A DNA stretch of 64,000 nucleotides. Source: an uncultured Phascolarctobacterium sp. Lineage in GTDB: Bacteria; Bacillota; Negativicutes; Acidaminococcales; Acidaminococcaceae. The DNA is taken from the NCBI GenBank assembly GCA_949299135.1, contig CASFZG010000003.1, forward strand, positions 1-64,000, in the 5' to 3' direction. The position numbers and the translations under genes are program-made. The notes under the pieces were generated by a model, which was given only the letters and a program-made list of their open reading frames with translations, did not search any database and had not been told where the DNA came from. Shown piece after piece: positions 191 to 38,246 of the stretch (position 1 is its first letter; every line of letters begins with the position of its first letter).

Positions 191-2404
191 TTAAAAGTCA
201 AAGCGAACGCCTGCGTTCCACTGCCACGGAGTATCAATTTCTCCACCTACTGCTTTTTCTACATCAAAGTATAGGTGAGATGTTTTACTGATGTTGATAT
301 TGGTGCCGATACCAAATTCAAACCAGCCGCCGCCAAGATCCTGTTCATAAGTAGCGCTCTGCCCGCCTTTAGTCATGGTTACGCTGGTGTCACCGTCAAA
401 GTCATACAGATAGCTTGCTTTTACATACACATTGCCTGCGCTGATATCTTTGCCTGCCGCAAAACCAACACGGCCTACTACGATGTTCATTGCGTCCTGT
501 GCTGCTTTTACATCATTGCTGGCAGTATAATTAGCACTGCTTAAATGTCCATAAGTCAGCTGCACCTGAGGTTCTACCCAGAAATCGTTACCTGCTTCAA
601 TGCGTTTGCCATATTCTGCGCTGAAAGCATAACCATTATTTCTATAATCACCGTTAACTTCCATACCAGCACGGTCAAATACATAAAATTCGTTATCCAA
701 GCGTGCATATTTAGCGCTCAAGTCAACATATTGTCCGTCATCGCCAACATAGGTACCGTATATGGTAAAGCCGGTGGACTGGTTTTCACCACTGCCGTTA
801 GCAAAGCTGCTCTTGCCTTCGGTACGGCTGATTGCTCCACCGATATACCAGTTACTGTCGCCTACTTTTTCATCATAACCTAATTGGTAGGTATTGTACT
901 GGTTGGTGATATCCAAATCGCCGCTTTCGCTTTCACCGCGTTTCATACGTGCCCAAATGCCAGCTTCACCGGTGCTGCTGCGCAGTTCGCCCATGCGCTG
1001 ATGCATTTCGTCGTTTTCTGCACGCCATGCCATAAATGCTACATTAGCAAGTTCAGTAATACCTGCATTTTTAACATTTTCGCCTTGTTTTACAGAACTA
1101 GTAACGATACCACCTTCACCGTCAGTTTTAGCAGTAATTTCACCAAGGATATCGCCTTCAGCGGCAGTTACGGTAATTTCTTTGTTGCCATTAGTAATAT
1201 TCATTACATCAGCTAAATCCTGCATACCTGCACTGATGTTATTTGCATCAAAGCTGTTGGTTACATTGCTGCTGCCTTTTAAGGTTAAACCTTCAGCTTT
1301 ATTTTGGCCAACGGTAATTTTGGTATCAAGGCTGTCAACCGCAACATTGGCATTATTACCGCTGATTGTAGAAACTTGGCTTTCACCCGTTACATTCCAT
1401 GTGGAAGCAGTACCCATATCTAAATCAATCGTACTGTTATTACTATCCATAGTAACAGTACCAGTCAGGCTGCCGTTAGTGCCCAACCCAAGGTCAATAT
1501 TGGATTTTTCTGTTGCACTTACATCACCTGTAATAACAGCTTGTTCAAGTTTATCATCACCAACAGTAATATTACCGTTTTTATCAGCTTTAATTGCACC
1601 GGTCACTTCAATGTTTTTGGCAGCAACAGTTACACCGCTATCACTACCATCTGTTCCATTATTAGCTCTTAATGCAGTTGCAGCATTAATTACAAGTTTT
1701 TCATCAGCAGTAATAGAAACAGAATTTTCATTTTTTAAATCACTGCTGTCTTGCCACTGTTGTCCATAAGAAGAAACAGCTGTACTGTTAGATTCAATAG
1801 TTACATTTTTACCGGTAATATTTACTTTTGAAGCAGTATAAGCTTCAGAAAGGCTTGCTGCACCAACAGCCACACCGCTATCAGTACCTAAATAAATATC
1901 ACCTTTAGCATTTAAAGTAATTTCGCCAGCAGCACCAGCACCATTACTTTGTGCAAATACTGCATTACCTGCATTTTGGATATTAATATTTTCAGCAGTA
2001 ACGTTTATTTTACCACCCATTGCGTGAAAAACTAACGGAGTATCTACAACGTTTTGAGTAGTAATATCACCATTAGCAGTAATATTAATCACGCTACCAT
2101 TACCATTGGTATAAAATACACTACCATCTCCACCCCACTGACCAGTAAGCGTAATATTATTTACATTACTTACTTCAGCAGTACCACTTACAGCAGATAC
2201 AGAAAATTGTTTATCACTTGCGCCTTCAAAAGTGATATTTTCAGTTCCATCTGTACCTTTGATAGTAGAATTTGCTGTTTGCGGACCTTCTAATACCTGC
2301 CCGTCACTTACAGTAATTTCTGCCGCACTTGCAACAAAAGGCGCAGCAAGCATTAAACTTAATACTACTGCATTTGTCAGTTTTTTACCATTCAATTTCA
2401 TCAT
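191..2404 (-). CDS. Autotransporter (type V secretion) adhesin-like surface protein
   Basis: The protein of about 737 residues starts with a signal peptide (charged start, hydrophobic core, cleavage near AASA/AE). A long passenger follows, rich in Asn, Thr, Gly and Ser, with repeated NITG/NVTIES/ITVG-type beta-helix strands (about residues 35-450). The last 270 or so residues look like a 12-stranded autotransporter beta-barrel: it begins near GIWARMKRGES, has alternating aromatic strands, and ends in VRFDF with the terminal Phe typical of outer-membrane proteins. The in-frame reading opens at an upstream TTG, but an AAAGGA ribosome site fits the ATG-ATG pair at 2404/2401 better. The passenger has no recognisable enzyme domain, so adhesion or surface display is an inference. 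The promoter is one of three with a G7 spacer, so expression may vary between cells. Confidence 0.88.
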   Translation of the reverse strand: MMKLNGKKLTNAVVLSLMLAAPFVASAAEITVSDGQVLEGPQTANSTIKGTDGTENITFEGASDKQFSVSAVSGTAEVSNVNNITLTGQWGGDGSVFYTNGNGSVINITANGDITTQNVVDTPLVFHAMGGKINVTAENINIQNAGNAVFAQSNGAGAAGEITLNAKGDIYLGTDSGVAVGAASLSEAYTASKVNITGKNVTIESNSTAVSSYGQQWQDSSDLKNENSVSITADEKLVINAATALRANNGTDGSDSGVTVAAKNIEVTGAIKADKNGNITVGDDKLEQAVITGDVSATEKSNIDLGLGTNGSLTGTVTMDSNNSTIDLDMGTASTWNVTGESQVSTISGNNANVAVDSLDTKITVGQNKAEGLTLKGSSNVTNSFDANNISAGMQDLADVMNITNGNKEITVTAAEGDILGEITAKTDGEGGIVTSSVKQGENVKNAGITELANVAFMAWRAENDEMHQRMGELRSSTGEAGIWARMKRGESESGDLDITNQYNTYQLGYDEKVGDSNWYIGGAISRTEGKSSFANGSGENQSTGFTIYGTYVGDDGQYVDLSAKYARLDNEFYVFDRAGMEVNGDYRNNGYAFSAEYGKRIEAGNDFWVEPQVQLTYGHLSSANYTASNDVKAAQDAMNIVVGRVGFAAGKDISAGNVYVKASYLYDFDGDTSVTMTKGGQSATYEQDLGGGWFEFGIGTNINISKTSHLYFDVEKAVGGEIDTPWQWNAGVRFDF

Positions 2405-2469
2405 GGTCATTCCTTTCAAAATTTTTCGCCAATTATTTTATATCAATCGATACATTGGGCGTTACTAAA

Positions 2470-11309: not shown

Positions 11310-11427
11310 ATAAATCACCGCCATTAACTGTTATTAGCATTATTATACAATAAAACAGCGCCTTTGGGTATTTAACACTATATGCTTTCACAAAAATATT
11401 ACAAAGCAGGGATAAGTAGATAGTTAA

Positions 11428-11467
11428 AAAATTAAGGAATTGCATCATTAAATACAATTCCCTAATT
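11428..11467 (-). terminator. Terminator of the CsgG/FlgT/dockerin operon
   Basis: Hairpin AATTAGGGAATTG / CAATTCCTTAATT followed by TTTTT on the minus strand, 10 bp after the last gene of the operon. Confidence 0.88.
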
Positions 11468-11478
11468 CAAAATTTATA

Positions 11479-12372
11479 TTACTTTACAAAAACAACAGCG
11501 CAATTTACCAGCATACCACTTCTTTCATTAGCAAGTAAAATTTTATTTCCGTCTTCAACGGATACTACTACATTTACTTTATTAACAGAATTTTTCCCGC
11601 CTTTAACATCAACAGCATTAATTACCAATGGATTATTTCCGGCACGGCTATTGCCACCGGCAGATTCTTCCAATGATTCCGAATACTCTACCATGCCATA
11701 AGTAATAGCCAAATCTTTATCCAAATTTTGAATACCGTAAATTACTCTGCCATCGGTATCATAAATAACCGGCGCAAAAGTTCTTTCCAAATTCATTCCT
11801 TCAGCATTAACAATAACACCAGTATATGCTGACGATGTAAAAACTCGCACTTCCTGTTCAGTAAAATTATTTAAATCAGCCGAAGCAAAAGACTGCTGCT
11901 GCATATTAGCCGTTAATGCCGGAATAGCAACTGATGCAATGCTGCCATTACGTCCGTACATTGGCACGCTTAATTCAACATAATAACTGCCATCTAAATT
12001 TTCGCCTTCATCAGTAATCACTGCACCTTTAATCAATCCTGAAACCTGCGACCTTACAACATCACTGCTAATTGTAAAATCTTCCATAAATGTTTCGCTA
12101 TCTATCTGCACACCATTAATTCGTTCCAACAAGTTTCTCTGAGCATCAACAATAGCTGCACGGCGAGCCAAAATCATATTGCCATTTTGCGGTGGTAATC
12201 CATACCCAATAGCAGAAATTGAATTTCGTTCATTTAATTGATTCACTGTAACTGCAGTATTTACACTATAAGCATTATTAGACATATAAGCAGCTTCTGT
12301 GATAGCTGTAGTGTTATTTAATATACCAAAAAGTAATGCTGTTACTAAAATATATTTTAAATATTTTTTCAT
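11479..12372 (-). CDS. LPP20/FlgT-N-like exported protein, 297 aa
   Basis: Signal peptide (MKKYLKYILVTALLFGILNN.., cleaved near ITEAA). A domain similar to LPP20-family lipoproteins and the FlgT N-terminus follows: an ISAIGYGLPP start, an RRAAIVDAQRNLLERINGVQ helix, then VVRSQVSGLIKGAVITDEG and a YYVELSVPMYG strand (about residues 50-150). The C-terminal half, with APVIYDTDGRVIYGIQNLD and ending NCAVVFVK, matches what often follows LPP20 domains. There is no lipobox Cys, so it is probably periplasmic. It is the last gene of the operon, 31 bp after the dockerin protein gene. The family is common in diderms but its role is unknown. Confidence 0.75.
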   Translation of the reverse strand: MKKYLKYILVTALLFGILNNTTAITEAAYMSNNAYSVNTAVTVNQLNERNSISAIGYGLPPQNGNMILARRAAIVDAQRNLLERINGVQIDSETFMEDFTISSDVVRSQVSGLIKGAVITDEGENLDGSYYVELSVPMYGRNGSIASVAIPALTANMQQQSFASADLNNFTEQEVRVFTSSAYTGVIVNAEGMNLERTFAPVIYDTDGRVIYGIQNLDKDLAITYGMVEYSESLEESAGGNSRAGNNPLVINAVDVKGGKNSVNKVNVVVSVEDGNKILLANERSGMLVNCAVVFVK

Positions 12373-12403
12373 TATGAATTCCTCCTAATAATTATAAATA
12401 CTA

Positions 12404-14179
12404 TTATTGACAACTATAAACAGAAATATCTATGGTTGTATCAACAAAATACGAAATACTTACATAACGTTCTTTTATAGTATTGCGACCATCAGAATTA
12501 GCGTCAAAAATATGAACATTCTTATTATCTATACCTAAAAAAATTGCAGAATGTTGAGTTGTTCCAATAATATTACCATTCTGATCTTTTCTATATTTAT
12601 ACATCTGTATAAAATCACCTACATGTGCTTTCTGCAATAATCCTACAATACTATTTGTGTTACCATTCACATTGGATAATGATCCTAGTTCATATACACC
12701 TTTTGCTAAATTTTTTAATTTATAATTATTGCTTGTTACACCAATCTTACCAACAGAAAACAATTCATCAAAAATATAAGTAGCAAATCCTTTACACTCA
12801 ATAGCGTTATACTTATTGGAAATCCATTTATAATTATTAAAATTCTTTCCATTCCATTCAGAAATTAGTGCCTCTAAATGCGTTTGTACATTTGAAACAT
12901 CTATTTCTTCTCTAATATTTTTATTAACCCAACCTTGCCTATCCTCACCCTTGCTGCTTTTATAATTTACAAGTAAAGCATTACCGGAAGTCTGAACTAC
13001 AGTATAAGTTTCACCTTTACCAATCCAACGTCCGCTAAAAATATTTTGCAAGCCAGCATCTCTGTATACATCGACATAACGTTGTGCCGTTTCTTCTTTT
13101 ACTGCTACAACTGTCGCAGGATTTCTTTTGACGAGTTTCCAGCACTGTCCTACTCCAGCATTGTACTGATGTATATTTACATTAGTTCCGGCAGTACTAC
13201 CTCCATTATCAACGGTTAACACAAATTGCCCTGGTACATTTCCCTGTAAACAATACCAACCATTACCTGCATTTAAAAATCTAAATTGGTGCATCGTCCC
13301 AGCATACGGATATAAAGTAACATTGTTGCCATTTTGTGCAATTCCATTATGGATATTTAATGCCAATCCGGAATTTTCGGCGGTTATTTTATACCATTCA
13401 CTGTTCCCTATTCTTGTTATATACCATTTTTGATGACTCGGCGCAGTTTGCTTGTCCGAACCAATATCGGTAATATACACATTAGCATTTGCCCCTGCAT
13501 TTGCACCTTCAACCGATAATTCCATACCTGGCGAAGAATATGGCTGCAAAGAATATAACCCTTCTGCCGGATATACTACCTGTAAAAGTTGATGATTATT
13601 TTGATTTGTATTATTTATGTTACCTGATACAATAGCATTTTTTAACAAAGATAAATCAGTAATACTTACATTACCATCACCATTCATATCAGCATTTATT
13701 TCATTAAATTTAGAAACCTGCTGTCCGGTTAAATAATTTTTTAAAACACTTACGTCTGTCAAAGTAATTTTACCATCACCGTTTACGTCACCTAACAAAA
13801 CTTCTGCCATATTGCTTTCCGGTCTTGATACAGGCTTAATAACCGGATTCCCAACTACTCTGCTAACATTATTATCATCACTAACAGTTATACGATTACT
13901 ATTTGATGTATTACTTTCAGGTATCTCTTCGAGAATATCAGCCGAATTATTTTCAAAAAAATCATTATCTGTATTCTGTTCTATTTGTGTTTGATTAGGT
14001 GTTTGATTAGGTGTTTGATTAGGTGTTCTATTAGTTACTACTTTACGGCGTACCACTTTGCGTACTACAGCTTCACAAACAGAATTTTCCGCAATATAAA
14101 TATTATCAAAACATAAGCTTGAAATCATCATTGCAGATAACAATGCAGATGATAATTTTATTATTTTTCCTTTACGCAT
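12404..14179 (-). CDS. Exported multi-domain protein: dockerin, ricin-type lectin, SH3-like and papain-like peptidase domains
   Basis: About 591 residues. Signal peptide, then a low-complexity linker with tandem TPNQ repeats (about residues 50-65). A type I dockerin (about 125-185) has two calcium loops, GDVNGDGKITLTDVSVLK and DMNGDGNVSITDLSLLK. A ricin-type beta-trefoil follows (about 200-350, with QKWYITRIG and QCWKLVK repeats of the QxW type), then an SH3b-like module (about 365-430). The C-terminal domain has a papain-like triad pattern: Cys in IECKGFATYIF (about 462), His in TQHSAIFLGI (about 543) and Asp in HIFDANSDG (about 559), as in NlpC/P60 or CHAP hydrolases. The ATG at 14179 has a better ribosome site than the upstream TTG. 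No cohesin partner is visible in the window. Confidence 0.82.
   Translation of the reverse strand: MRKGKIIKLSSALLSAMMISSLCFDNIYIAENSVCEAVVRKVVRRKVVTNRTPNQTPNQTPNQTQIEQNTDNDFFENNSADILEEIPESNTSNSNRITVSDDNNVSRVVGNPVIKPVSRPESNMAEVLLGDVNGDGKITLTDVSVLKNYLTGQQVSKFNEINADMNGDGNVSITDLSLLKNAIVSGNINNTNQNNHQLLQVVYPAEGLYSLQPYSSPGMELSVEGANAGANANVYITDIGSDKQTAPSHQKWYITRIGNSEWYKITAENSGLALNIHNGIAQNGNNVTLYPYAGTMHQFRFLNAGNGWYCLQGNVPGQFVLTVDNGGSTAGTNVNIHQYNAGVGQCWKLVKRNPATVVAVKEETAQRYVDVYRDAGLQNIFSGRWIGKGETYTVVQTSGNALLVNYKSSKGEDRQGWVNKNIREEIDVSNVQTHLEALISEWNGKNFNNYKWISNKYNAIECKGFATYIFDELFSVGKIGVTSNNYKLKNLAKGVYELGSLSNVNGNTNSIVGLLQKAHVGDFIQMYKYRKDQNGNIIGTTQHSAIFLGIDNKNVHIFDANSDGRNTIKERYVSISYFVDTTIDISVYSCQ
13987..14026 (-). 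repeat. In-frame 12-bp tandem repeat coding for TPNQ
   Basis: Three perfect copies of ACACCTAATCAA plus a partial fourth, inside the linker of the dockerin protein. Copy-number change would keep the reading frame and only alter linker length. Confidence 0.85.
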
Positions 14180-14199
14180 ATTAATACACCCTTTCACTT

Positions 14200-14940
14200 T
14201 TAGCGTTTGTTTTTACCGTCTAAACGTGCTATAAGCCCGGTTTTCTTATCATATACAGCATCTTCAACTGCTTTTGCTAAAGCATTATGTACCTGCACCT
14301 GACTTACTTCCGTTGTCCCTATGACAAAGGTATGCTCTTCACCAGTCGTTTCAACATCACTGTAAAGCAAATTTCCATATTCGTCTTCATATAAGTATGT
14401 AGTTTCTTTTCTTCTGTCTAAATACGCTTTTGTATCAGTACTGGTTGAAGCACCTTTACCACGGCTTGCCAAAACAATTCTTCCGGTTTCAACATCTATT
14501 ACCCTTACATTAATATTAGCATTTACAATATGCTGATTGTTTTCCAATCCTCCATGAACACTATTTTGATAACCGGCAGTGCTTTCTTTAGTACTTAAGT
14601 TTGTTACACTTCCGTAAACCAAATATTGTACACCGGCCAACCGTCCTATCTCAGCCGCTGTCGTTGTATCAATCAATCCCGTCATATTTAAATAATGTTC
14701 ATCAGTAATTGCTTTCAACTGCTGTCTTTCTATAACATTAAATCTGCCGCAGTTTACCAGCTCCTCAATCATAAAATCGGTAACAATGCTAACATCGTCA
14801 AAAGTTAAATTGTTCGGTACGGAAGATTTGTTCTCAAAATTCAGAACGGCTATTGATGGATAATCTCTAATACCTGCAAAACAGGTTATACTAAAACATA
14901 AATTTAGTAACAACACCAATGCCAAAACAACCTTTTTCAC
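14200..14940 (-). CDS. CsgG family periplasmic/outer-membrane protein, 246 aa
   Basis: Signal peptide followed by the classic CsgG fold: PSIAVLNFENKSSVPNNLTF at the start, then FMIEELVNCGRFNVIERQQL (about residues 55-75), AAEIGRLAGVQYLVYGSVTN (about 95-115), NINVRVIDVETGRIVLASRG (about 145-165) and a C-terminal VHNALAKAVEDAVY helix. CsgG forms a nonameric outer-membrane pore for curli export, but many CsgG-like proteins are soluble and of unknown role. There is no lipobox Cys after the signal, so a lipid-anchored pore is not assured. No curli subunit genes (csgA/csgB) are seen. It lies 20 bp upstream of the dockerin gene. Confidence 0.86.
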   Translation of the reverse strand: MKKVVLALVLLLNLCFSITCFAGIRDYPSIAVLNFENKSSVPNNLTFDDVSIVTDFMIEELVNCGRFNVIERQQLKAITDEHYLNMTGLIDTTTAAEIGRLAGVQYLVYGSVTNLSTKESTAGYQNSVHGGLENNQHIVNANINVRVIDVETGRIVLASRGKGASTSTDTKAYLDRRKETTYLYEDEYGNLLYSDVETTGEEHTFVIGTTEVSQVQVHNALAKAVEDAVYDKKTGLIARLDGKNKR

Positions 14941-14967
14941 TTTATCAACCTTCTTTGTAAAAATTTA

Positions 14968-15738
14968 TTAGTCCTTTGCAGTTAGAACTAATTTTCCTTT
15001 CTTTAAATCTTTTACTAAATCTTTTACAACCTTTTTACTAATTTTGTCTAAAGATTCGTAAAACAAATCATTGCTAAAGCCTTTTGTTCCCAAAGTAACT
15101 CCCAGAGCTTTATTAACGCTATTTTTAGAAGCAGCTTTTTCTTGTTTAGTCCATACCACTTCTCCAGTTGAGGCTTTTATAATTTTTACTGTTACAACAG
15201 CTTCTAAAGACTGACTTGTATTAGATAAAACAAAAGATCGCAAAGGCAAAATCATAAAACCTGATTTTACATACAAATCATCTATGCTGCCGTACAGTAA
15301 ATATTCAGCATTATTTTTTTCACCAATAATTCTGGTATATTCAGCATCAACATAATCACCTTTATTCTTAATACTTATATCATTCTCTGATGCCTGAAAA
15401 ATAGCTGAGAAATCTTTTTGGTCTACAGAATTGAATAAATGTTCTGATGTAAAATTAATTTTACCTTCTGCATTTATAGTTTCTTCATCGTTATAGCGCT
15501 CCATAATAATAAATTTATTTGCTTCAAATAATCGTTCAAGCAATAATTCATCCATTATTTCATCTACTGGAAAATCACTGTAAATAGTATTATTAGCAAA
15601 ATCCATAAATACTACTTTTACCGGTGTTTGAGCGTTAGCATTACCAGCAACAACAGTAAAATATAAAACCAGCATTAAAAAACAACCAACAAATTTACAT
15701 ATTATATTTTCTGTAAATTTTTTTGATGACAAGTACAT
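14968..15738 (-). CDS. CsgG-like exported protein, second copy, 256 aa
   Basis: Longer signal segment (residues 1-37, ending NANA/QT), then a divergent CsgG-like domain: VKVVFMDFANNTIYSDFPVD, an ELLLERLFEANKFIIMERYN segment, AEYLLYGSIDDLYVKSG, and AVVTVKIIKASTGEVVWTKQ. A Lys-rich C-terminus with VVKDLVKDLKKGK ends the protein. The order of strands and the GSIDD and TGEVVW motifs match CsgG, but similarity to the neighbouring copy is low, so the duplication is old. It lacks a lipobox. It sits between the LolA-like and the canonical CsgG gene with short gaps (11 and 27 bp). Confidence 0.78.
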   Translation of the reverse strand: MYLSSKKFTENIICKFVGCFLMLVLYFTVVAGNANAQTPVKVVFMDFANNTIYSDFPVDEIMDELLLERLFEANKFIIMERYNDEETINAEGKINFTSEHLFNSVDQKDFSAIFQASENDISIKNKGDYVDAEYTRIIGEKNNAEYLLYGSIDDLYVKSGFMILPLRSFVLSNTSQSLEAVVTVKIIKASTGEVVWTKQEKAASKNSVNKALGVTLGTKGFSNDLFYESLDKISKKVVKDLVKDLKKGKLVLTAKD

Positions 15739-15749
15739 ATTTAAATTCC

Positions 15750-16565
15750 TTACAACATCCTTGCAACTTTTAAATTTTCAGGTATATCAAAAATTTGTGA
15801 ATCAATAGTATTAGAAAATAATTTAATATCTATTACTTTAGCGCCACCAATTTCAACATCATTTTCAAATGTTTTCATATCATCAATACGGATATATTTA
15901 GCTAAATTATTATTGCTAAAATAAAATCTCGAAGTAGCTTTTAAAGCATAATTAGATGGCATTACAAATTCCTCATAAACATAAGTCGTACCATCAATAA
16001 TATCTCTTTCGCTCCCATTATAAACATAGCACATATTCTCTTTTACAGGTATTCCCTCATATTCATAACCAGTATCTTCATTATATTCAGGTAATATTGA
16101 ATTAAAATCAATCATTAATAAATCAAAATACATATCAAACATAGTATGATTTCCATAAACTGATTTAGGAAATTTTTGAATGGTATTTTTACTACTCCCT
16201 CTTGTTTCTCCATCAAACGAACTGCCATCAAAAACCTGACCATTTTTAACAAAATAACTGTAAATAAACACGCCATCGTCAATTAAATAATTTTTAATTT
16301 TTTGACCTTTTTTCACAAATTCATTACTAAAAAGTTTTTTCTTGCCTTCTTTTGCCAAAGTTACAATTTCATCTTTTATAACGAAACTTTGTCCTGGCAA
16401 TTTATTGTTTTCCTTAACTTGATAAGTAATTATAAAATTTTCACTTCTAAAAATATCTGCTACATTATCAGTTAACTTTTCAGAGCAAAATGCTATGTTG
16501 CAAATTAATACCAGTAAACCTAATATACACATTTGCAATACCTTATTAATAAATTTTTTCATCAT
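15750..16565 (-). CDS. LolA-like outer-membrane lipoprotein-sorting-type protein, 271 aa
   Basis: Signal peptide (MMKKFINKVLQMCILGLLVL..), then a beta-rich domain with the pattern of LolA/LolB-like proteins: repeated strands such as KKLFSNEFVKKGQKIKNYLI, YVYEEFVMPSNYALKATSRF and YFSNNNLAKYIRIDDMKTF. The ending IKLFSNTIDSQIFDIPENLK matches the usual C-terminal strand of this superfamily (variable strand, then FDIP). The similarity is at fold level, so transfer of lipoproteins is not claimed. A Cys at residue 27 (IAFCSE) could be a weak lipobox. It is the second gene of the operon. Confidence 0.6.
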   Translation of the reverse strand: MMKKFINKVLQMCILGLLVLICNIAFCSEKLTDNVADIFRSENFIITYQVKENNKLPGQSFVIKDEIVTLAKEGKKKLFSNEFVKKGQKIKNYLIDDGVFIYSYFVKNGQVFDGSSFDGETRGSSKNTIQKFPKSVYGNHTMFDMYFDLLMIDFNSILPEYNEDTGYEYEGIPVKENMCYVYNGSERDIIDGTTYVYEEFVMPSNYALKATSRFYFSNNNLAKYIRIDDMKTFENDVEIGGAKVIDIKLFSNTIDSQIFDIPENLKVARML

Positions 16566-16578
16566 GATTAACCTCCCA

Positions 16579-17688
16579 TCAAAATACGCTTAATTCTAAT
16601 TTGCTATTGCTTATACTATCTATAAACATACCCCCTTTTATATGTTTTTTTAATAATTCAACAAGCACATGCGGTTTTTGCAATGTATCAACATCAACTA
16701 TTGCCTTATTATTCTTATATTCTCTGATGTGTACATTTTGAATACCTGCCATATTTTTTAATATATTTATAACACTTTCAATATCATCATAATTATTACA
16801 ATTAATTATTAACTGTACTGTGTCATAAGCTTTAGCCGCAAGTTTTCTAAATTTGTTTGCTATGTTTTGCGCAGCTTTATCAGCAACAACTTTTATAGCT
16901 TTATTTTTAGCCCTTATTTCATTTTGTTCTATTCCGTTTCCATCAACTTTAAAAGTTTCAACTATTTCACCCGTATCAAACTTTATAATTTTTATTGTTA
17001 AAATAGCTTTACTATTCATTAGCATTGTTTCAGTATATGTACCATCATTATTGGGCAAATAAATAGTATTGCTATCTAATTCATTTTTACCAATTACTAA
17101 ATAATCAATCCCATATTCTTCAACTTCTCCAAGAAAATAATTATCGCCATTGTAGATACTGTTTAATAAATCAGAATTTTTTAATTTTGCTAATAAATTT
17201 ATATCTGCAACATGATTAAATCCTAATTTAATTAGTTTTTCATTTATTTGACTTTCCGTTATACTATCGTTATCAATATAAGAGTAACCATAATCTGTAG
17301 TTTCATTTTTTAGAACTACTACCGCAACCCTTGGGTCATTAAGTTGAGCAAGCATATTTAATTTATCCATTAATTGGGAATTTGGATTAGTATCTACATC
17401 TATCCGTGTTGTAACAAAATATCCTGTCGAATCTGAATATTCTTTTAATATTTCTATATTTTTAACAAAACCTTGTGAATTGGTATATATCGAATCTAAT
17501 TCTACAACTGCGTTTTGCGTCAATGTATTTGAATCAACAAAAGCACCTACAACATTTTCTACTGCATTACGCATCGCATCACGTACAGCGCTATTTTTAT
17601 CAATACCAACTCCGTCAACAGTAACTTCTTGCGCAAAAACACAATTGGAACAGCAAAGTAATATAAATAATAACAAATATTTTTTCAT
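16579..17688 (-). CDS. FlgT/CsgG-like exported protein, 369 aa, first gene of the operon
   Basis: Signal peptide with an FAQE cleavage site. The N-terminal domain resembles FlgT-N/LPP20: VTVDGVGIDKNSAVRDAMRN, AVENVVGAFVDSNTL, NSQGFVKNIEILKEYSD and a YFVTTRIDVD strand (residues ~20-110). A middle CsgG/FlgT-M-like domain carries DPRVAVVVLKN, EEYGIDYLVIGKNELD and ILTIKIIKFDTGEIVETFKV (about 115-290). A C-terminal domain of about 80 residues resembles a DUF2066/secretin-type alpha-beta fold. FlgT is a flagellar H-ring protein in Vibrio, but no flagellar gene is nearby, so this is a relative with another job. Start: ATG after GGAGG, rather than the in-frame TTG six bases before. Confidence 0.78.
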   Translation of the reverse strand: MKKYLLLFILLCCSNCVFAQEVTVDGVGIDKNSAVRDAMRNAVENVVGAFVDSNTLTQNAVVELDSIYTNSQGFVKNIEILKEYSDSTGYFVTTRIDVDTNPNSQLMDKLNMLAQLNDPRVAVVVLKNETTDYGYSYIDNDSITESQINEKLIKLGFNHVADINLLAKLKNSDLLNSIYNGDNYFLGEVEEYGIDYLVIGKNELDSNTIYLPNNDGTYTETMLMNSKAILTIKIIKFDTGEIVETFKVDGNGIEQNEIRAKNKAIKVVADKAAQNIANKFRKLAAKAYDTVQLIINCNNYDDIESVINILKNMAGIQNVHIREYKNNKAIVDVDTLQKPHVLVELLKKHIKGGMFIDSISNSKLELSVF

Positions 17689-17720
17689 CCCCAATTATCC
17701 TCCGGTCGTTATTTTTTTAA

Positions 17721-17744
17721 TACAATAAGGTGTACATTTTGGTA
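17721..17744. promoter_or_regulatory. Operator-like 24-bp palindrome, copy 1
   Basis: Begins TACAATAA and ends TTTTGGTA; the most degenerate of three copies, lying in the leader of the exported-protein operon just before its first gene. Confidence 0.6.
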
Positions 17745-17756
17745 AAGATTAAAAAT

Positions 17757-17780
17757 TACAATAACACTTACTTTATTGTA
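17757..17780. promoter_or_regulatory. Operator-like 24-bp palindrome, copy 2
   Basis: Begins TACAATAA and ends TTTATTGTA. Same length as copies 1 and 3; starts 36 bp from copy 1. Confidence 0.65.
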
Positions 17781-17822
17781 TAATTTTAGTAAAAAATTAA
17801 CATGAAAAAAACATAATTTCAT

Positions 17823-17872
17823 GCTATAATAAATTAAAATACACTTACAATAAAGTACACTTTTTTGTAAGT
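17823..17872 (-). promoter_or_regulatory. Promoter of the exported-protein operon, overlapped by operator copy 3
   Basis: A 30-bp near-perfect palindrome (17843-17872, one mismatch between 14-bp half-sites, core TACAATAA...TTTTTGTA) covers the putative -35 TTGTAA (17845-17850). A 16-bp spacer leads to -10 TATAGC (17823-17828). Such overlap suggests repression by a dimeric regulator. Confidence 0.6.
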
Positions 17873-17940
17873 ATATAGTACTATTTTTTTCATTTGCACT
17901 ATATTTTAAATATATTTATTTCTTTTTTCAAAAGCAAAAA

Positions 17941-17979
17941 TACCTGTAACTAGATTAAAATAAAATCTAATTACAGGTA
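17941..17979. terminator. Hairpin terminator between the operon promoter and the NlpC/P60 gene
   Basis: Inverted repeat TACCTGTAA.TAGATT / AATCTAATTACAGGTA with T-rich flanks on both sides. No plus-strand gene ends here, so its transcript is unknown. Confidence 0.7.
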
Positions 17980-18018
17980 TTTTTATCTAAAAATTTATAT
18001 ACACATTGTAGAAAAAAT

Positions 18019-36998: not shown

Positions 36999-38246
36999 TT
37001 AGAAAGTGAAGATAACTTCGGACCAAATGGTTTCGGTGTTAGCATCGCCTTCACGGGAATCCAGGTTGTAGTATTTAACGCCTGCTACAATGTTTTTAGC
37101 AAGGGTCAGGTTAGCACCAGCTTCAATACCTTTGTAGCCATCGCTATCAACAATAGAATCGCAAGGAATATAGGTGTAAGAAGCAAGGGTCGGATAAATT
37201 ACGGTGCTTTCCGGACGATCCATGTAGTTTACATAAGCGCCCCAAGAACCTACTTTAGAAGCTTTAGCGCCAGCGTAGTTCAGGCCTACCATCCAGCCGT
37301 TGTCATCTCCGTCATAATCGGATACATCGCCGTTATACCAAGCTGCTTTTAAAGTCAGATCGTCCATGAATTCCCAGCCAGCTGCGATTTCATAAATATC
37401 CTGATCATATTGGGTATCTACTTTGTAGTAGTTAACAGCTGCGTCTACAACGCCCATTTTAGCTGCTACACCAGCTACATATACACGGTCATCAGAAGTT
37501 AAGCCTTCTTCAAATTTAACCAGTTTACCATTTTCATCGTATTCGGCAACTTCTGCCAAATCGTCAGAACCTTTCATTGCCCAGCCATAAACTTTAACGT
37601 CATCGCCATAAGCAAGTTTAATACCATCTGCACGGGTATCGATTACAGTACCGCCAACATTGGTGAAGTCCTGACGGCCAGCATCAACTTTAACGCCGCC
37701 AACACGACCGGATACATAAGCCCAGTTCAGAGTTACATCATCGGTAGATTCAGCATCGTCAAGATACTGATTGTTTTCGAAACGACCGGTGTAGGTCCAG
37801 TCTTCGTTAATAGCGCCGTTTACGAACAGACGGGTACGCAGACGGCCCTGAGAAAGACCATTGCCATCATGTTTGTCAACGTCGGTATCACGATAGCTCA
37901 TACGGATCTGACCGGTGATTTTTACGTTGTCAGCTTTTTTCTCAAGGTTAGCTACGCGAACACCGAGGCTGTCCAATTCGTCTGCGAATTCAGCAGCCAG
38001 TTTGTCTACGTTAGCGCCGTTTGCCATAGCTTTTGCTACGATCTGTGCCATTTCATAACGGGTCATCAGTTTGTCGCCACCAAAGGTGCCGTCAGGATAA
38101 CCGGTTACAACGCCTTCTGCAGCCAGTTTGTTAACTGCGTCATAAGCCCAGTGGCCAGCCGGTACGTCGCTGAACGGGTTAGCTGCATAAGCGGAAGCAG
38201 TTACGCCGAGAGCCATAGCCATTGCTAATACTAAAGATTTTTTCAT
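36999..38246 (-). CDS. SLH-domain outer-membrane porin (OmpM-like)
   Basis: A 415-aa protein with a signal peptide (MKKSLVLAMAMALGVTASAY, AA cleavage). An SLH domain follows (about 22-80: NPFSDVPAGHWAYDAVNKLA, GVVTGYPDGTFGGDKLMTRY), then a short coiled-coil (LGVRVANLEKKADNV), then a beta-barrel of alternating strands (about 110-415) ending WSEVIFTF with a terminal Phe. In Negativicutes OmpM proteins bind polyamine-modified peptidoglycan by their SLH domain and form trimeric porins that tether the outer membrane. Strong codon bias suggests high expression. It has a 270-nt leader and a G7 promoter. Confidence 0.95.
   Translation of the reverse strand: MKKSLVLAMAMALGVTASAYAANPFSDVPAGHWAYDAVNKLAAEGVVTGYPDGTFGGDKLMTRYEMAQIVAKAMANGANVDKLAAEFADELDSLGVRVANLEKKADNVKITGQIRMSYRDTDVDKHDGNGLSQGRLRTRLFVNGAINEDWTYTGRFENNQYLDDAESTDDVTLNWAYVSGRVGGVKVDAGRQDFTNVGGTVIDTRADGIKLAYGDDVKVYGWAMKGSDDLAEVAEYDENGKLVKFEEGLTSDDRVYVAGVAAKMGVVDAAVNYYKVDTQYDQDIYEIAAGWEFMDDLTLKAAWYNGDVSDYDGDDNGWMVGLNYAGAKASKVGSWGAYVNYMDRPESTVIYPTLASYTYIPCDSIVDSDGYKGIEAGANLTLAKNIVAGVKYYNLDSREGDANTETIWSEVIFTF

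What the first reader, a model, noticed from the sequence alone, without database searches (positions are those of the whole stretch)
11479..17694. Operon of FlgT-like, LolA-like, two CsgG-like, dockerin and LPP20-like exported proteins
Six consecutive genes all encode exported proteins, and four of them carry CsgG/FlgT/LPP20-type folds, which occur in outer-membrane pores and rings. There are no curli or flagellar genes. The cargo-like member carries dockerin, ricin-type lectin, SH3 and papain-like peptidase domains. One reading is an undescribed envelope machine (a periplasmic ring or pore) that exports or anchors a carbohydrate-binding peptidase. Its AT-rich composition differs from the flanking housekeeping genes, which hints at acquisition.
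Basis: partly seen in the sequence, partly recalled or inferred. Interest (0 to 1): 0.85.

Follow-up and report, generated by a model that had tools for sequence, protein, structure and literature searches.

The report
Flagellar-ring-like envelope operon without flagellum
A bacterium that has no flagellum carries an inserted six-gene cluster built around relatives of the proteins that form the outer ring of some flagellar motors, together with a likely cell-wall enzyme, and the same core genes recur in many outer-membrane-bearing relatives of Gram-positive bacteria, with no function reported in the literature that could be searched.

Summary
The six genes are real, co-directional, tightly spaced and all exported. 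Three form a recurring core: P6 (FlgT_N-like), P3 (CsgG-like), P1 (LPP20/FlgP-like). Of 102 class genomes with a strong FlgT-like hit, 100 also have the LPP20-like protein. A CsgG-like gene lay within 3 kb in 32 of 33 sampled loci, all three genes in 21. Outside the class, 19 of 19 tested FlgT-positive genomes have Omp85, so the core tracks the outer membrane. The P1 family matches the Campylobacter motor lipoprotein (FlgP) at 9e-20, without a gap across its ring-forming hairpin. The window genome and its trio-bearing family relatives lack flagellin and rod/hook genes. The operon is a 6.6-kb insertion with a clean empty site in five of five congeners. P2 and counterparts in two relatives join an SH3-type module to different (putative) peptidoglycan-hydrolase domains. 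The dockerin is the genome's only one and no cohesin was found, so cellulosome-type anchoring is unlikely. "LolA-like" is unsupported. Best reading: a flagellum-independent, H-ring-like periplasmic assembly paired with a wall hydrolase; assembly and function are inferred. Novelty: new variant of a known kind.

The parts
11415..18011 (.). Inserted segment: in five congeners window positions 11414 and 18012 lie only a few to about 17 bp apart
   Evidence: blastn of flanks, 82-98% identical; junction sequences
16579..17694 (-). P6, FlgT_N/SHS2-domain protein (core; likely ATG at 17688), type A FlgT-like
   Evidence: Pfam FlgT_N 4.4e-5; NCBIfam LipL46 1.4e-12; class-wide family; alignment A4
15750..16565 (-). 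P5, exported protein of unknown fold; distant counterpart of X1/X2 at a similar place in related operons
   Evidence: no Pfam match; C-terminal similarity to X1/X2
14968..15738 (-). P4, divergent CsgG/FlgT_M-like protein (CsgG2 group)
   Evidence: Pfam FlgT_M 2e-4, FlgO 0.007, both below cut-off; 24-28% identical to CsgG2 of relatives
14200..14940 (-). P3, CsgG-like protein (core; CsgG_A group); relatives carry inserts of about 200-340 aa before the last helix, one with two dockerins
   Evidence: Pfam CsgG 6.6e-27; alignment A3; model matches FlgT Z 13.4, PelC 12.2, CsgG 11.8
12404..14197 (-). P2, modular protein: linker, dockerin (res. 135-189), ricin-B lectin (203-356), SH3-type module (377-428), putative Cys/His hydrolase domain (Cys468, His549); likely ATG at 14179
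   Evidence: Pfam; PDB sequences; module shared with the L024 M23 and L028 CHAP proteins
11479..12372 (-). P1, LPP20/FlgP-like SHS2 domain plus C-terminal domain (core)
   Evidence: family profile to 9hmf_C 9e-20 and other FlgP structures; alignment A5
11429..11468 (-). Operon-end hairpin followed by a U-run, probable terminator
   Evidence: 18-bp stem, -20.1 kcal/mol, z -8.0
17937..17983 (-). 20-bp-stem hairpin near the upstream end of the insert

Best explanation
The operon encodes a flagellum-independent relative of the flagellar outer-membrane ring (H-ring) assembly. P1 (FlgP-like) and P6 (FlgT-like) carry SHS2 domains with the hairpin that in FlgP and FlgT goes with ring formation; P3 and P4 carry the CsgG/FlgT_M domain, which also tends to form rings. 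Together they would form a ring or scaffold between the outer membrane and the peptidoglycan. P2, a putative peptidoglycan hydrolase with SH3 and lectin modules, would act at that site, opening or remodelling the wall locally. The lineage gained the operon by insertion. Shown: the genes, domains, conservation of the core, the insertion and the absence of a flagellum. Inferred: ring assembly, location at the outer membrane, contact between the proteins, and P2's activity and site of action.
For: Core conservation: FlgT-like (best E below 1e-30) 102/300, LPP20-like 129/300, both 100/300; CsgG-like within 3 kb in 19/20 class and 13/13 outside-class loci, all three in 11/20 and 10/13. A minimal FlgT_A-CsgG_A-LPP20 trio occurs alone in G204 (L071). 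Ring-forming feature: the P1-family and P6-family profiles align to the 9hmf lipoprotein chain with no gap across the hairpin region; 9HMF is the C. jejuni motor scaffold, and PMC12222027 states that ring oligomerisation in the FlgP family correlates with that insert, as in FlgT. The CsgG4 partner in relatives has a weak FlgT_C match (0.003). P3 model: FlgT 3w1e Z 13.4, rmsd 3.6, 160 residues; LPHT-ring chain 8z5n Z 12.7. Confined to outer-membrane genomes: Omp85 in 19/19 FlgT-positive genomes tested outside the class, 4/16 controls. No flagellin or Flg_bbr_C in G000, its trio-bearing family relatives or the one-contig genome G114. Wall-related proteins recur: M23+SH3 in G021, CHAP+SH3 in G040, CAP proteins; the SH3-type module is shared with P2.
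Against: No complex, location or activity was tested. Vibrio FlgO and FlgP are outer-membrane lipoproteins (PMC7990780), but almost none of these proteins has a lipobox. P6's structure prediction failed (pLDDT 38.8), and its C-terminal region has no FlgT_C match. The P3 model is of moderate quality (pLDDT 63.5), and matches to PelC, TolB, CsgG and LpoB are nearly as good, so the fold alone does not choose a function. P2-type hydrolases are not found beside most trio loci.
Confidence: 0.45

Rival explanations
1. A CsgG-type outer-membrane secretion pore. P3 (with P4) forms a barrel that exports P2, a lectin/SH3/peptidase protein acting outside the cell, for example a bacteriolysin against competitors or an adhesin; the changing catalytic domains would then be swapped payloads.
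For: P3 is a clear CsgG-domain protein, with loops of about 20 and 45 residues where CsgG has its membrane hairpins (position of the hairpins from own knowledge). Proteins with a shared SH3 module and M23, CHAP or Cys/His heads. SH3 plus M23/CHAP is the architecture of known bacteriolysins (own knowledge).
Against: No CsgE/CsgF-like partner recognised in the operon; no lipobox on P3; the two loops look polar rather than clearly amphipathic; most trio loci have no such cargo; model matches do not favour CsgG over FlgT, PelC or TolB.
Confidence: 0.2
2. A mobile envelope island of separately acting periplasmic proteins with no shared complex.
For: Patchy presence in the genus; accessory genes vary between relatives.
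Against: The core trio stays together across a wide range of outer-membrane-bearing members of the phylum.
Confidence: 0.12
3. LpoB-like periplasmic regulators of peptidoglycan synthesis: the CsgG/LpoB-fold proteins activate penicillin-binding proteins, and P2 balances growth by cutting.
For: LpoB matches for P3 by Pfam (2e-9), NCBIfam (6.5e-9) and fold.
Against: NCBIfam score 36 against a cut-off of 110; no PBP gene in the operon; LpoB does not account for the FlgT/FlgP-like partners.
Confidence: 0.1
4. A flagellar part: the trio serves flagella in flagellated relatives and is a remnant or stray copy here.
For: In the class the FlgT-like family is commoner with flagellin (112/168) than without (16/132); the Vibrio H-ring is FlgT, FlgO and FlgP.
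Against: Not in flagellar gene clusters in the loci read; here it is an insertion rather than a leftover; the association is confounded by ancestry and is uninformative outside the class.
Confidence: 0.1
5. Cellulosome-like attachment through the dockerin.
For: A good type I dockerin in P2.
Against: It is the only dockerin in the genome and no cohesin was found; in G014 the only dockerins lie inside the CsgG protein itself.
Confidence: 0.03

Closest known systems
Vibrio flagellar H-ring (FlgT, FlgO, FlgP)
   Same: Combination of a FlgT_N/SHS2 protein, a CsgG/FlgO/FlgT_M-domain protein and a FlgP/LPP20 protein; a FlgT_C-like domain occurs in the CsgG4 partner of relatives
   Different: No flagellum in this genome; no lipoboxes; FlgT domains distributed differently over the proteins; accompanied by putative wall hydrolases
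Campylobacter FlgP basal disk (9HMF) and Helicobacter Lpp20
   Same: P1 SHS2 domain with the ring-forming hairpin region, family E 9e-20
   Different: P1 is longer, with a C-terminal domain whose family weakly matches 5jir (1.5e-5), and has no lipobox
CsgG curli pore
   Same: P3 has the CsgG domain and loops of similar length
   Different: No lipobox, no CsgE/F recognised in the operon, large inserts in relatives
LpoB / PelC / TolB N-domain / GNA1162
   Same: Same fold class as P3
   Different: Different partners and gene context; LpoB equivalog score far below its cut-off
Leptospira LipL46
   Same: P6 matches positions 56-376 of its model (1.4e-12)
   Different: Far below the equivalog cut-off; P6 has no lipobox

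Membership tests
Vibrio-type flagellar H-ring | FlgP/LPP20 SHS2 domain with hairpin insert | tested here: met
   P1-family profile aligned to 9hmf_C without a gap across the insert, 9e-20; criterion from PMC12222027
Vibrio-type flagellar H-ring | FlgT with N, M and C domains in one protein | tested here: inconclusive
   P6 shows FlgT_N only, below cut-off; a FlgT_C-like match lies in the separate CsgG4 protein of relatives; P6 fold prediction failed
Vibrio-type flagellar H-ring | FlgO and FlgP are outer-membrane lipoproteins | tested here: not met
   Lipobox pattern scan: 1 of 29 LPP20, 0 of 46 FlgT-like, few CsgG-like; none in the window proteins by eye
Vibrio-type flagellar H-ring | Part of a flagellar motor | tested here: not met
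   No flagellin, no Flg_bbr_C in G000
Vibrio-type flagellar H-ring | Ring formation | not testable with these tools
   Needs oligomer prediction or microscopy
CsgG family (Pfam PF03783) | CsgG domain above the Pfam cut-off | tested here: met
   P3 94.6 bits against 20.8
CsgG curli pore | Two membrane hairpins forming a barrel | tested here: inconclusive
   Loops of fitting length but low confidence there in the model
CsgG curli pore | Lipoprotein | tested here: not met
   No lipobox in P3 or in most relatives
CsgG curli pore | CsgA/CsgB curlin substrate | not tested
   Curlin was not searched in the genome; none recognised in the operon
LpoB | NCBIfam equivalog cut-off | tested here: not met
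   36.1 bits against 110.55
LolA (for P5) | LolA profile match or fold | tested here: inconclusive
   No Pfam match at E<=1; fold not predicted
Cellulosome dockerin-cohesin pair | A cohesin in the genome | tested here: not met
   No cohesin in G000 at E<=0.1; assembly 98% complete
NlpC/P60 or CHAP peptidase (P2 C-terminus) | Profile match | tested here: not met
   No Pfam match up to E 10; only a Cys/His motif; weak LytE hit E 0.5

The most novel reading that the evidence does not exclude
A dedicated outer-membrane export machine, made of FlgT-, FlgP- and CsgG-like rings, that delivers interchangeable wall-cutting enzymes (SH3 module plus M23, CHAP or Cys/His head) out of diderm relatives of Gram-positive bacteria.
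Probability: 0.13. Interest if true: 0.9.

Novelty: new variant of a known kind. Interest (0 to 1): 0.66.

Why it matters
The core is shared by outer-membrane-bearing members of a phylum best known for single-membrane cells, and it resembles a flagellar ring in organisms that have no flagellum. It gives a defined set of genes for asking whether flagellar outer rings were recruited from, or gave rise to, a general envelope structure, and what that structure does. No paper in the searched library combined these families; most subscription journals are not in that library.

Tried and rejected
Dockerin docking to a cohesin. P5 as LolA (no profile support). AT-richness as proof of recent transfer: relatives' operons are AT-rich too; the empty site replaces it. 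The flagellin association as evidence of a flagellar role: not corrected for ancestry, and outside the class nearly all sampled genomes are flagellated, with or without the trio. A shared operator: TACAATA/TTATTGTA repeats upstream of P6 are not recognisably repeated upstream of relatives' operons, and the HTH gene that flanks five relatives' operons was not found in the window. Viral contigs gave no homologues for a deeper alignment. The P6 model was too poor to use. The genome-contig scan gave only two distant Bacteroidota CsgG-like loci. Phage and plasmid searches with the P2 C-terminus gave nothing or only E 0.7. PDB sequence search with the CsgG_A profile gave nothing, probably because of the long inserts.
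Full report
What is there. Six minus-strand genes lie at 11479-17694 in the order P6, P5, P4, P3, P2, P1 (transcription order), 2-31 bp apart, with a strong hairpin and U-run behind the last. All have N-terminal signal sequences, judged by eye. The listed start codons are probably upstream of the true ones for P6 (ATG 17688) and P2 (ATG 14179), judging by the ribosome-binding sites. The window also holds an SLH-domain/beta-barrel ORF of OmpM type at 36999-38246, and the genome has Omp85.

Families. P3 is a clear CsgG-domain protein (6.6e-27) and the only CsgG match in the genome. P6 matches FlgT_N (4.4e-5, below cut-off) and the LipL46 model (1.4e-12, below cut-off). P1 matches LPP20 weakly alone, but the profile of its family matches the lipoprotein chain of 9hmf at 9e-20 and other FlgP-type chains at 1e-7 to 8e-6; 9HMF is the C. 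jejuni flagellar scaffold, and I take the chain to be FlgP. P4 is a divergent CsgG/FlgT_M-like protein. P5 has no match; its C-terminus resembles the X1/X2 proteins at a similar place in relatives. P2 has a dockerin, a ricin-B lectin, an SH3-type module and a C-terminal domain with a Cys/His motif but no profile match.

Relatives. Four genomes of the same family have a longer, syntenic operon, and a fifth has one cut by the contig end (L024-L028): FlgT_A, CsgG_A, X1, X2, CsgG2, CsgG3, variable proteins, then, in several of them, LPP20, Y, CsgG4 (with a weak FlgT_C match), FlgT_B and a CAP protein. The CsgG_A proteins carry inserts of about 200-340 residues before the final helix; in G014 the insert holds two dockerins. 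The variable proteins include M23+SH3 in G021, autotransporter barrels in G035 and G040, and CHAP+SH3 in G040. P2 residues 377-428 are 42% identical to the corresponding module of the G021 protein (3e-8) and weakly similar to those of the G040 protein.

Wider distribution. In 300 genomes of the class the FlgT-like family has strong hits (best E below 1e-30) in 102 and the LPP20-like family (E below 1e-10) in 129; 100 genomes have both. Of 33 loci taken because of a FlgT-like hit, 32 have a CsgG-like gene within 3 kb and 21 have all three. These loci were chosen from strong hits, so the fractions are not unbiased. In 398 genomes of the phylum 20 outside the class have a hit; 19 were tested and all have Omp85, against 4 of 16 controls. 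The core therefore tracks the outer membrane, though not every outer-membrane genome has it.

Flagella. G000 and all family members with the trio lack flagellin and Flg_bbr_C, as does the one-contig genome G114, which has two FlgT-like genes. Across the class the FlgT-like family is more frequent with flagellin (112/168 against 16/132), but related genomes are counted as independent, and outside the class flagella are nearly universal in the genomes tested whether or not the trio is present. The trio is thus not dependent on a flagellum; whether it serves one elsewhere is open.

Insertion. In five congeners the NlpC/P60 gene (P7) and the response-regulator gene are neighbours; window positions 18012 and 11414 lie at most about 17 bp apart in the empty site, and the flanks are 82-98% identical. 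The segment 11415-18011 is the operon with its upstream region. No integrase or transposase ORF was seen inside. One congener (G004) carries a different version (module B) elsewhere in its genome. Loss in all five congeners instead of gain in this one is possible but less likely, since this genome's closest congeners are among the five.

Mechanism. The Vibrio H-ring consists of FlgT, FlgO and FlgP and is needed for outer-membrane penetration and stator assembly (PMC7990780). Ring oligomerisation in the FlgP family goes with a hairpin insert, as in FlgT (PMC12222027); the P1 and P6 families align across it without gaps. The P3 model, of moderate confidence, matches FlgT best (Z 13.4), with PelC, TolB, CsgG and LpoB close behind. 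The best-supported account is an H-ring-like assembly that works without a flagellum and is paired with a wall hydrolase; the inferred steps are marked in the best explanation. An export pore for P2 is the main rival.

Dockerin. P2 holds the only dockerin protein of the genome, and no cohesin was found. In G014 the only dockerins are inside the CsgG protein. The domain seems to move between members of this operon, so it may be a calcium-binding module for contacts inside the system rather than a cellulosome tag (inference).

Limits. P6's model failed, because homologues fetched by genome search could not be handed to the folding tool under its stated rule. No oligomer could be predicted. Literature was searched in an open-access library only.

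Noticed in passing
window 17937-17983: A 20-bp-stem hairpin sits just inside the upstream end of the insert, in addition to the terminator-like repeat of P7 beside the junction.
   Followed up: partly
window 17721-17853: TACAATA/TTATTGTA half-sites, one as an inverted repeat (TACAATAA-N8-TTATTGTA), upstream of P6; possible operator.
   Followed up: partly
L024 6192-6530, L025 14241-14573, L026 14015-14332, L027 4127-4459, L031 10050-10373: A conserved HTH gene stands divergently next to the related operons; no similar gene was found in the window.
   Followed up: partly
L083 6296-7483: A serpin-family protein gene lies next to the trio in G022.
   Followed up: no
L027 10651-11625, L028 4715-6235: Autotransporter beta-barrel proteins lie inside the operon of two relatives.
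   Followed up: no
P2 residues 116-131 and L028 2-1510 residues 149-164: A short shared linker motif (GNPVIKPVSRPESN / GNPIVTPVTRPEAN) in the two hydrolase-like proteins, 56% identical over 16 residues.
   Followed up: no
window 191-2419: A large autotransporter-like ORF with a barrel-like C-terminal region in an AT-richer stretch.
   Followed up: no
window 36999-38246: SLH-domain plus barrel ORF of OmpM type, consistent with a Negativicute.
   Followed up: no
L065 7006-16670: In the one-contig genome G114 one FlgT-CsgG-LPP20 set is spread over about 10 kb among repeated short ORFs.
   Followed up: no
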